A stretch of DNA of 37,880 nt from a virus. A model generated the notes under the pieces. It worked only from the letters and a program-made list of their open reading frames with translations, was not told the origin of the DNA and searched no databases. Shown here one piece after another: positions 7,129 through 20,487 of the stretch (within the stretch, counting starts at the first letter, position 1; every line of letters starts with the position of its first letter). Both the position numbers and the translations under genes were made by a program. The stretch spans positions 1 through 37,880 of the IMG/VR virus record IMGVR_UViG_3300006751_000042; one strand, given 5' to 3'.

Positions 7129-10100
7129 CTACTTACGTTCGATAACTATCCTTCTGCCTGTCTCGGAGTGGGTGAAACGTGCCTTCGGTCCGTGTTTAAG
7201 GAGAGCTTCCGTGAACCTCTTTAGACGGTCTTTTTTGAAACCCTCCTCCGAGTTGAACTCCGCACGGATAGCCACACTGGGCAGGTATCTTTCTGTCGCA
7301 TGGTAATCAACAATGCCACGCAGTCGGGCAGGACCAAACCCCGCGTTTTTGAATCTTGCCATAACTTCTCTGCGGGTTATTGCCCCCGCTTCCATATCTA
7401 TAGCTGTTTGCACCATGTCGGACAGTTCGGCATCAAAGCGTTTACGTTGCTCAATGACACGTTTTGCCAGTATCTCAATCTCACGGTCCCCTTTCGGACC
7501 GTCCATGTCCCGAGTACCATCTCTTAGTACTTGGTAAACACCTTGCACAAGGGTGACCTCTTCCTTTCTTCGGGAAGCTGCTGCTTTGTATAGCGCAAGA
7601 TCCAGACGCACCTCGCGGGGGGCCGCTGGCAGCATGATCTGAGTGATGGTCTCTTCAAGAGATCTCTTGAGAGTTTCATCATCAGCCCCCTGACTCGCTT
7701 CCCACTCGCGCAGCCGCCTAACATTACCCGGCTCAACTGCTCGTTGCGCGAAATGGCTGAGGCCCTTCAGTATCCGTGTCTTAGGAGGATCACTATCATG
7801 GTAAACACGACCGTCTTTATTCTCATAAGACTCTTTAAGGGTAGACCTAATGAACCCCGGATTGAGAAACCTCTGAGTGTACCCCTGCCAGAGATTCAGT
7901 GCTGCTGTTTTATAGTCGCCTCTGAGGATCTCCAGAACAGATGCGGTTGTCCCGTCGAATACAGGGGAGGCCGCGTTAATGTAAGTGAGGTCGAGAGAGT
8001 ATAAACGGTCTGGTTTAAAGCCAGCCCCCGTGAAACCCAATACTTTCTGTAACAGGTCCCCCGGCAGATAAATGTACTGGTTAAGTTTACCCCACGATGG
8101 AGCAGCCTCCTTGAGAAGTTCTTCTTCGTCGTCCGTGGGGTTGATCCCCAGAAGAACAGCCGACGCAATGGGTAGTGCTATGGAAATACCTCCATGCACT
8201 GTGGCCGCGGCAGCAAGTCTTCGGGCTCCCCGCGCCTGCATAACTGGGTTGTCACTTCCCATCTCTTCTTTCGGGATGGCCCGCATCTGATTGTGTACAA
8301 TCCTGAACTGATCCAGCCAGAACGAAAGGAACGGGTCTGCGTGAAACGCATTAAACCTACGGAGCGTCTTAGCAAAGTTGGGCGCTTCGGAATACACAGG
8401 GCTCATGGCTCTGGTCTTACGCGCAGCCTCAAATTCCAGCTGTTCATCGGTCATATTCAGGAATCCGGTGTCCACCTTGTTTTTCCTATCATACGCACGC
8501 GCTTTCCTGAGCGCCTTACGTTCGGATTTATACATCGCTATTTTTCCTGCGGCGTCGATCCCTTGAGCAAAATCTGCCAACCGCCGGAAGCCACCTCCTA
8601 ATATATAGTCTCCCCCCTTGGTTAGTTTCAAGAAACCCTTCTTAACAAGATTCTCCTCGGACATATCCTCGGGAGCCAAGGCCATGAGTTCTTTGGTCCC
8701 GTCAAAGAATATACCGTACGGGTTCTTACTGTTCTGGGTAGCCATCTGGGACAAGTAGTTCAAGTCTATCTGACTCTGGTCGATGCCGAGTCTCTGGAAC
8801 AGTACTTGCCGTGTAGTTCTTAAGCGCGGGTCTCGCCCTATAGCAAGAGCCTTTAACTTACTCTCACCGGGTGCCGCGATTCTAGATCTCCCAAAGGCCA
8901 TTGCAAACTCAGCTACGATCCTAGTGGGGTTAACCAACGCCGCCATGCCATAGGATGTAAGGGCAGTGAGTGCATTTCTAAAATGGTATGCGGGTACATT
9001 CGCTATGGTTTTAGAGAACATGAATACCGAGTTCAGCTTAAGGAACGCATTCGTCATGTGCGCCGCCCCTTTAATAAGCATATTATTGTTCTTCTGCTCC
9101 GCGAAGTCATACATGGTGGTAGCCACGTTACCACGGCTTGCAGCTTGGTAAGCCTGCAGGGATGTGTAAAGATCCTCAGGAACATACATATCCAAAGAAG
9201 GATCAAACAGGGACACAAACCCCGAGCCCTCTTCTTTGTTACTAAGTGGTCTGAGAGGAAGCCCTGTTCTAAAATTAACGTATGGGCGGGCACCTTCTTC
9301 CGTCAACCCCGCCGCCTGTGCTTCTTCGTACGTGTATACAAAGGCGTTTTTTAAATCGCCGTCTCTCACGCCTCCCACCTCCTTGAGATCATTAAGGAAG
9401 GTCATGGACTCAGCCATGCGAACCTGCATAGTTACTGTTGTGTAGAGACTGGCCAAGCCATGCTCTTCAAAAGATCCGTCCTCGGTACGTTCAAGACCGA
9501 ACTGTCCCAGAAGATACCTGACCCCCTCGTCCATGTCGCCTTTGGATCGGAGGTTATCTACTTGGACCCGCGTGAGGTTAGCTACTTCCGCACCCTGATT
9601 CTTTTTGACGTCCTTAAAATCTACCCGTTTTCCTTGGGCGGTATCCATTAAAGTAGCTAAAAATTCATTTAGAGCTGCAACACCTTTATTATCTTCAGAG
9701 ACTACATCCTCCGCTCGCTTTGTTACAACTTTGTTGAACTCTTTCTTGGAGAGACTCTTAAGAATTTTCGCTTCCGCTTCTTCGGCGGGGTCTGGGAACT
9801 TGACCCCACTGTCCAGACTTTCAATCAATGCTTCCAGTTGCCGCTTTATAATCTTCTTCTGGACTTTCACCTGTTGATGTTCAAAGAACGGCAAAGAGGC
9901 ATCTCTCCGATCTTGGAATCTACCATCTGGCTTCATCACTTCCCGCAAGTACGCAATGTCATTATGCGCGCGGTATCCCCTTGTTAGATAGATGCCCGCC
10001 ATACGATCAAAGATCAGCCCTATCTTCCCACCCTTCACATCAGTAAGTTTGTACTGCTTACTGATAAGTTTACTCAGACTATCAATAGTCGCGCGTGTAG

Positions 10101-20487: not shown

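What the first reader, a model, noticed from the sequence alone, without database searches (positions are those of the whole stretch)
7129..20487. Giant 4452-residue virion-like protein with a protease-like site
A single unbroken 13.4-kb gene takes about a third of the window. It combines hydrophobic segments, long coiled coil, a Glu-Pro rod and an HEVGH metalloprotease motif with a candidate third ligand near residue 2625. It lies at the end of a terminase - coiled-coil - coiled-coil - giant order reminiscent of podovirus internal proteins. It may be an ejected multi-domain protein that travels into the host with the DNA.
Basis: partly seen in the sequence, partly recalled or inferred. Interest (0 to 1): 0.75.

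Follow-up and report, generated by a model that had tools for sequence, protein, structure and literature searches.

The report
Giant phage ejection protein, metalloprotease-like
A third of this marine-virus DNA fragment encodes one enormous protein that most likely sits inside the phage head and is shot into the bacterium ahead of the DNA; it carries a protease-like, metal-binding domain shared with the ejected proteins of better-known phages.

Summary
The 4452-residue ORF is real and unbroken. The domain is homologous to the HExxH domain of podophage ejection proteins. Its profile finds just two PDB sequences at E<=0.1 among 177,635: an 'internal virion protein' (1337 aa, the length of phiKMV gp37) and PhiM1's tetrameric ejection protein. 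Profile-profile comparison links it to PhiM1 (97%) and N4 virion RNA polymerase (90%). The C-terminal module recurs in Cellulophaga phage phi18:3 gp123, whose record cites virion MS/MS. TerL is followed by the giant's N-terminal module in 48 of 48 eligible loci. Best reading: the largest ejection protein of an uncultured marine phage group, built like N4 gp50 but with no RNA polymerase detected; 3 of 9 relatives scanned carry enzyme-like inserts (ART, GNAT, methyltransferase; some under Pfam cut-offs). Packaging, ejection and proteolysis are inferred, not shown. New variant of a known kind.

The parts
22547..24337 (-). Terminase large subunit (596 aa), first gene of the cassette
   Evidence: phrog_2, E 7.7e-15; 452 relatives in IMG/VR
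21741..22517 (-). 258-aa protein, candidate small ejection protein
   Evidence: no family match at the thresholds used; in the 30 loci examined one or more genes of variable size stand here; role inferred from order
20509..21738 (-). 409-aa protein, candidate middle ejection protein
   Evidence: in the 30 loci examined (of 48 eligible) a gene of 300-426 aa lies directly upstream of the giant; profile A8 finds one PDB sequence, E 0.37, at E<=1; role inferred from order
7129..20487 (-). Giant ejection-type polyvalent protein, 4452 aa
16588..20487 (-). N-terminal module, residues 1-1300, conserved, with moderately hydrophobic segments at 654-672 and 885-903
   Evidence: profile n3 matches 134 of 633 frames; hydropathy
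15628..17100 (-). Linker, residues 1130-1620: Glu/Ala-rich stretch and Glu-Pro run
   Evidence: composition
15691..15786 (-). Glu-Pro run, residues 1568-1599
   Evidence: the Pfam PARP hit (32.1 bits, cut-off 100) is low complexity
13948..15630 (-). Residues 1620-2180, no known family; stands where N4 gp50 has its RNA polymerase
   Evidence: aligned in the window and 3 close relatives only; no PDB match at E<=1
12361..13353 (-). Zincin-type domain, residues 2379-2709
12979..12993 (-). HEVGH, residues 2499-2503
   Evidence: E and second H in 57 of 57 rows; first position H in 42, E in 15
12607..12609 (-). Glu2627, candidate third metal ligand
   Evidence: E in 56 of 57 rows, D in 1
11188..12360 (-). 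Residues 2710-3100, variable interval; some relatives carry extra domains here
7132..10731 (-). C-terminal helical module, residues 3253-4452

Best explanation
It is the largest internal (ejection) protein of an uncultured marine tailed phage. It is made with two smaller proteins and packed inside the head. On infection it leaves through the tail before or with the DNA. The N-terminal module probably meets the envelope, and flexible Glu-rich and Glu-Pro linkers let the domains thread the tail one by one. The zincin domain and the helical C-terminal module form the conserved part that stands where N4 gp50 has the C-terminal region needed for encapsidation. Middle segments are exchangeable cargo. 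Shown here: the ORF, its conservation, domain order, homology of the zincin to the HExxH domains of phiKMV/PhiM1-type ejection proteins and of N4 gp50, homology of the C-module to a protein recorded as found in virions, and linkage to TerL. Inferred: late expression, packaging, ejection, membrane contact, metal binding and peptidase activity (self-processing or attack on a host protein).
For: Zincin profile A3 against PDB: 9sfn_G internal virion protein E 9.4e-12 and 8vb2_A tetrameric ejection protein E 3.9e-9, the only two sequences at E<=0.1; the smaller profile A2 ranks the same two first. hhalign: PhiM1 family 97.4%, E 1.3e-11; N4 family 90.1%, E 1.6e-6. Controls: another HExxH metallopeptidase of the same window 2.0%, E 0.024; T7 gp16 0.2%. 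phrog_2206 'virion RNA polymerase' is hit by 25 of 57 zincin rows, best E 5.1e-11, at profile 2101-2236 in the two of five members scanned singly that match it, the same place as phiKMV gp37 (2098-2250, E 2.5e-17). The corresponding HExxH and third-ligand residues are invariant in the 12 N4-type and 9 PhiM1-type proteins aligned. C-module in Y3, HTVC027P gp85, phi18:3 gp123 and psg01 at 118-245 bits; phi18:3 gp123 is recorded from MS/MS proteomics. BFVD: 26 matches at E<=0.001 for the C-module model. TerL followed by the N-module: 48 of 48 eligible loci. Smaller genes before the giant in 30 of 30 loci examined, as in podophage ejection operons (PMC8954989, passages).
Against: No virion proteomics for this group. 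The window's own zincin row does not hit phrog_2206, nor does PhiM1's protein. Direct HMM search of N4 gp50 with the larger profile A3 gave no listed match, though A2 gave 15.7 bits. The C-module is not significantly related to N4's or PhiM1's C-terminal regions by sequence (0.14% and 1.6%). The N-module and the partner proteins have no identified relatives. 15 of 57 zincin rows have Glu instead of the first metal His, 2 of 63 detected zincins showed no [HE]ExxHA, and 18 of 81 frames with both terminal modules show no zincin. The tail type is not established: portal-like and scaffold-like genes found no informative match. One BFVD match of the C-module is named a tail protein.
Confidence: 0.8

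Rival explanations
1. A tail tape-measure protein of a long-tailed phage, its length setting tail length.
For: Size, helical content, hydrophobic segments; weak TMP_N match, 13.3 bits; one BFVD match named tail protein.
Against: TMP_N is far under its cut-off of 27 bits; the zincin profile finds only ejection proteins in the PDB at E<=0.1; lengths vary widely among relatives, 2581-4450 aa in 56 frames cut at neither end (upper end limited by locus length) and up to 5394 aa; it lies beyond TerL after smaller genes.
Confidence: 0.07
2. An N4-type virion RNA polymerase whose polymerase domain has diverged beyond recognition.
For: Same order: N-terminal region, low-complexity linker, middle domain, HExxH domain, large helical C-terminus; zincin homology to N4.
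Against: N4 RNAP residues 998-2103 find nothing at E<1 among the frames and giants searched; residues 1620-2180 are half the size of that domain and match no PDB sequence at E<=1. A single-sequence search could miss a very distant polymerase.
Confidence: 0.06
3. A non-virion effector or anti-defence polyprotein made in the infected cell and cut up by its own zincin.
For: 3 of 9 relatives scanned have ART, GNAT or methyltransferase matches; Iyer et al. suggest zincin processing of polyvalent proteins (PMC5512222, passages).
Against: phi18:3 gp123, which shares the C-module, is recorded in virions; the zincin's solved relatives are packaged ejection proteins; TerL-linked position.
Confidence: 0.07

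Closest known systems
N4 gp50 virion RNA polymerase (Schitoviridae, phrog_2206)
   Same: N-terminal region, low-complexity linker, middle domain, HExxH domain C1, large helical C2; zincin homologous (90.1%)
   Different: no RNA polymerase detected; C-module not significantly related to C2 by sequence; Glu-Pro run
phiKMV gp37 / PhiM1 tetrameric ejection protein (phrog_342; PDB 8vb2, probably 9sfn)
   Same: zincin homologous at 48.3 and 38.3 bits; largest gene after smaller ejection genes
   Different: 1337 and 1263 aa against 4452; PhiM1's C-terminal region not significantly related by sequence
Cellulophaga phage phi18:3 gp123, Pseudoalteromonas phage Y3 1027-aa protein, pelagiphage HTVC027P gp85
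   Same: C-terminal module homologous (129.5, 244.7 and 135.5 bits); phi18:3 gp123 recorded from MS/MS
   Different: no zincin match; 1935, 1027 and 1342 aa; in Y3 ddrB-ParB, LPD1, LPD5 and ART lie in the neighbouring 3421-aa gene
Phage polyvalent proteins (Iyer et al. 2017)
   Same: giant virion-linked chain with a zincin; ART, GNAT or methyltransferase matches in 3 of 9 relatives scanned
   Different: no polyvalent family above its cut-off in the window protein itself

Membership tests
Largest podophage ejection protein (TEP / gp16-like) | HExxH domain of the phiKMV/PhiM1 type (a feature of these lineages; not of T7 gp16) | tested here: met
   T7 gp16:
Largest podophage ejection protein (TEP / gp16-like) | largest gene, after smaller genes, in one cassette | tested here: met
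   (30 of 30 loci examined); operon layout from PMC8954989, passages
Largest podophage ejection protein (TEP / gp16-like) | packaged in the head and ejected | not testable with these tools
   only indirect: phi18:3 gp123 shares the C-module
Largest podophage ejection protein (TEP / gp16-like) | C-terminal region of TEP type | tested here: inconclusive
   hhalign 1.6%; weak BFVD matches to two internal virion proteins, E 2.1e-3 and 2.8e-3
N4-type virion RNA polymerase | single-subunit RNA polymerase domain | tested here: not met
   by sequence only
N4-type virion RNA polymerase | HExxH domain C1 | tested here: met
   25 of 57 rows hit phrog_2206, the window's row not
Phage polyvalent protein | several effector or processing domains in one chain | tested here: inconclusive
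   window protein: one recognised domain, the zincin; relatives: enzyme matches in 3 of 9 scanned (G009, G011, L138), above cut-off for GNAT in G009 and ART in L138
Phage polyvalent protein | LPD38 domain (PF18857) | tested here: inconclusive
   no match in 15 records, but nothing matched in the 14 controls either
Tape measure protein | tape-measure family match | tested here: not met
   TMP_N 13.3 bits against a cut-off of 27
Zincin metallopeptidase | HExxH plus third ligand, conserved | tested here: met
Zincin metallopeptidase | zincin fold | tested here: inconclusive
   confident AF2 core, top two VIA matches metallopeptidases but Z only 5.6 and 4.7; Foldseek nothing significant
Zincin metallopeptidase | peptidase activity | not testable with these tools
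   needs an assay

The most novel reading that the evidence does not exclude
One HExxH...E domain is an old shared module of the largest ejected proteins across N4-type, phiKMV/PhiM1-type and this uncultured marine group, and the marine giants use it, with conserved N- and C-terminal delivery modules, as a chassis into which lineages insert different enzymes (N4: RNA polymerase; here: ART, GNAT, perhaps methyltransferase, second zincin-like copies) for delivery with the genome.
Probability: 0.5. Interest if true: 0.78.

Novelty: new variant of a known kind. Interest (0 to 1): 0.62.

Why it matters
It joins two studied machines, the N4 ejected RNA polymerase and the phiKMV/PhiM1 ejectosome, through one homologous domain, and adds a large marine phage group with no close cultured member in the collection searched. 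It makes a concrete question testable: is the HExxH site catalytic in ejected proteins, and what does it cut? If the chassis reading holds, the exchangeable segments are a natural catalogue of enzymes that phages deliver before any viral gene is expressed.

Tried and rejected
LPD38: the C-module looked like it from memory; PF18857 matched none of 15 records nor the controls, so it is neither shown nor excluded. T7 gp16 has a HERLH but no similarity to the zincin. A second zincin-like site in the window at SEEFIH (about residue 2880) was not supported (-3.3 bits); G009 and G011 each have a 35-bit match to the third-ligand part with an HExxH some 85-115 residues before it. An RNA polymerase in the giant: none found by sequence. 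Pfam on the window protein: the low-complexity PARP hit under its cut-off and weak chance matches. G007 and G005 (whole) matched no Pfam family at E<=0.1, the middles of G004 and L117 none at E<=0.01. PHROGs on the 12 C-modules of A1: none at E<=0.01. Foldseek against PDB with both models: nothing at E<=0.001; VIA for the C-module stays below Z 6, which shows neither a known nor a new fold. A portal-like profile found nothing useful; scaffold-like and capsid-like alignments were not followed. Host: TerL relatives in 4 loci of three MAGs labelled Blastopirellula, Opitutae and Altibacter, too inconsistent to name a host.

Counts to read with care. The 57 rows of A3 are the window, three longer pieces, and 53 of 55 non-redundant zincin pieces (those of L113, the window's near-identical twin, and L114, used in longer form, were left out); one contig stands twice (L005 and L117); pieces were chosen by score (100 bits or more) against the 11-sequence zincin profile, so the conservation is partly conditional. 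The 30 loci are a hand-picked part of the 48 eligible ones. Frames include near-identical contigs. One search printed its counts and then stopped with a script error; the hydropathy part was redone. Confidence was lowered from 0.82 to 0.80 on the second check, because the zincin fold search and the polyvalent test are now told as inconclusive.

Full report
What is there. The ORF at 7129-20487 on the minus strand is 4452 residues from ATG to stop without interruption. It follows terminase (phrog_2), a 258-aa and a 409-aa gene on the same strand. The window is a virus record of 37,880 bases. A contig of 66,822 bases, G001, holds a 99.9% identical giant; ten other contigs hold unbroken relatives of 3729-5394 aa and an eleventh a truncated one. 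Terminase has 452 relatives in IMG/VR but only four weak matches (22-25% identity, none covering 80%; two are records of one phage) among 50,697 phage records, so the group is common in metagenomes and has no close cultured member in that collection.

Domain map. blastp against the 12 relatives shows three conserved parts, an N-terminal module, a central one around 2180-2540 and a C-terminal one from about 3100, with variable stretches between. Of 81 frames that hold both terminal modules, 63 also hold the central domain; of the 64 not cut at the 5' side, 52 do. In the rows listed the order is N-module, central domain, C-module, the last two sometimes overlapping slightly; the interval between them is -82 to 1624 residues, median 156. 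Nine relatives were scanned with Pfam, whole or in part. Three have enzyme-like matches: G009 GNAT (21.7 bits, cut-off 20.7); L138 ART-PolyVal (47.3 bits, over its cut-off of 31.2), in a frame where no zincin was detected; G011 methyltransferase, GNAT and ART-PolyVal, all under their cut-offs. DUF7178 is over its cut-off in G003, G010, G011 and L138. G004, G005, G007 and L117 gave nothing at the thresholds used.

The metal site. HEVGH is at 2499-2503. By composition 0.085 HExxH would be expected, so conservation carries the argument. In the 57 rows of A3 the second position is Glu and the fifth His in all; the first is His in 42 and Glu in 15; residue 2627 is Glu in 56 and Asp in 1; Gln2639 is invariant. 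The AF2 model of residues 2150-3060 has overall pLDDT 64.9, 90-94 in the ten-residue blocks from 2480 to 2539 around HExxH, 71 in the block with Glu2627, and poor values in most of the stretch past about 2690. Foldseek against PDB gave nothing significant; the second look by VIA put two metallopeptidases first, 6mdw at Z 5.6 and 3e11 at Z 4.7, which are low values.

Relatives of the metal-site domain. An hmmsearch of the PDB with A3 returns two of 177,635 sequences at E<=0.1: 9sfn_G, 'Internal virion protein' of 1337 aa (E 9.4e-12), and 8vb2_A, 'Tetrameric ejection protein (gp48)' (E 3.9e-9). The smaller profile A2 ranks the same two first, followed by unrelated entries at E 0.19 and above. 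1337 aa is the length of phiKMV gp37, and the match falls at the same residues; that 9sfn is phiKMV-like is my inference, since no paper naming it was found. 8vb2 fits PhiM1, whose 1263-aa core protein has HEAAH at 385 and whose ejectosome paper calls gp48 the tetrameric ejection protein (PMC11440229, passages). hhalign gives 97.4% with the PhiM1 family and 90.1% with the N4 gp50 C-terminal region, aligned over HExxH and the NEF/EEF motif. N4 against PhiM1 gives 58% over the HExxH part. Controls are low: another HExxH metallopeptidase of this window 2.0%, T7 gp16 0.2%, the StenR_269 'vRNAP' 0.2%. PHROG 2206, 'virion RNA polymerase', is hit by 25 of 57 rows, but not by the window's own. Of five rows scanned singly, two match it, at profile 2101-2236, and three do not; phiKMV gp37 matches 2098-2250 at E 2.5e-17; PhiM1's protein does not match. 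The four corresponding metal-site residues are invariant in the 12 N4-type and the 9 PhiM1-type sequences aligned.

The C-terminal module. Profile A4 matches the Y3 1027-aa protein (244.7 bits), HTVC027P gp85 (135.5), phi18:3 gp123 (129.5) and psg01 (118.6), and weakly cto1L10 (19.5). The phi18:3 record marks gp123 'annotation based on experimental MS/MS proteomics analysis'; I saw the record, not the paper. The AF2 model is good (pLDDT 77.7, pTM 0.71); PDB gives no significant match; BFVD gives 26 at E<=0.001, several named as large polyvalent proteins, one from Cellulophaga phage phi19:3, one named tail protein; internal virion proteins of an Erwinia phage and of LKA1 follow at E 2.1e-3 and 2.8e-3. 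By sequence it is not significantly related to the C-terminal regions of N4 or PhiM1.

Setting. Of 80 TerL loci, 48 hold at least 5.5 kb beyond TerL; in 48 of 48 the giant's N-module lies downstream on the same strand at 1.7-4.6 kb. In the 30 of these that I listed, a gene of 300-426 aa stands just before the giant and at least one more gene before that. A review describes podophage ejection genes as a gp14-like and a gp15-like gene followed by a larger gp16-like one (PMC8954989, passages).

How it most likely works. N4 gp50 is described as a membrane-inserting N-terminal domain, a ~100-residue low-complexity linker, RNA polymerase, an HExxH subdomain C1 and a helical C2, ejected as beads on a string through a ~35 A channel (PMC12633501, a preprint, passages). 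The C-terminal 1,400 residues of N4 gp50 are needed for encapsidation and the protein is packaged uncut (PMC5512222, passages). The window protein has the same order of parts: N-module with two moderate hydrophobic segments, Glu-rich and Glu-Pro linker, a middle region, zincin, helical C-module. I infer that it is packed with its smaller partners, ejected, and uses N- and C-modules for delivery. What the zincin does is open: self-processing in the head or the host, cutting a host target, or a structural metal site. The Glu variants at the first position (15 of 57) suggest that some members have altered or lost activity.

What differs. No RNA polymerase was found by sequence, so it is not filed as a vRNAP. 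The N-module has no relative among the reference proteins apart from a 9.6-bit match to a small PhiM1 internal protein, which I do not rely on.

Novelty. Iyer et al. already named the N4 HExxH domain a zincin-like metallopeptidase and described the polyvalent theme; their text has no occurrence of KMV, gp37 or Autographi. The PhiM1 ejectosome paper has no occurrence of protease, peptidase, metallo or zincin anywhere in its text. The N4 preprint compares gp50 with T7 gp16 as an analogue, notes lack of detectable sequence similarity for the DEV ejection operon, and does not name phiKMV or PhiM1. The ejection-protein review has no word beginning with zinc, protease or peptidase. Of the paper searches, (three of five terms) returned only the N4 preprint and Iyer et al.; two searches returned 693 and 34 papers, of which I saw 15 and 8 listings (none of those 8 holds 'zincin'); one search returned four. 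The homology between the N4 and phiKMV/PhiM1 HExxH domains, and the marine giants, may therefore be unreported, within an open-licence library that lacks most subscription papers.

Noticed in passing
window 1379-4140 (+): A MoxR-like AAA ATPase (phrog_1297) next to a DUF2201 protein with metallopeptidase-like and VWA-like parts (phrog_1314), preceded by a weak DUF3150 match: a MoxR-VWA-like pair in a phage.
   Followed up: no
window 30156-34075 (+): Family A DNA polymerase of only 590 aa and a DUF5906/primase-type protein of 716 aa, end to end.
   Followed up: no
A3 rows, e.g. L169, L176, L129: 15 of 57 zincin rows read EExxH instead of HExxH with the other site residues kept: a natural series of first-ligand variants.
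   Followed up: partly
L103 and L101 giants (G009 about 3499-3650, G011 about 2768-2950): A second zincin-like copy in the cargo interval: a 35-bit match to the third-ligand part, with an HExxH some 85-115 residues before it.
   Followed up: partly
L082:18171-21254 (phage Y3): The paper lists this ORF as an ADP-ribosyltransferase auxiliary metabolic gene; over half of it is the C-terminal module of ejection-type proteins.
   Followed up: partly
G005 5349-13403: A second very large ORF of 2684 aa in a relative's genome, not examined.
   Followed up: no
L110:3198-4412 (G001): A 404-aa protein, scaffold-like by my guess, also carries a Glu-Pro-rich stretch like the giant's.
   Followed up: no
phrog_16227: A PHROG of 4401 positions, 'virion structural protein', matches one zincin row near its C-terminus (E 1e-4): perhaps another family of giant virion proteins with this domain.
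   Followed up: no
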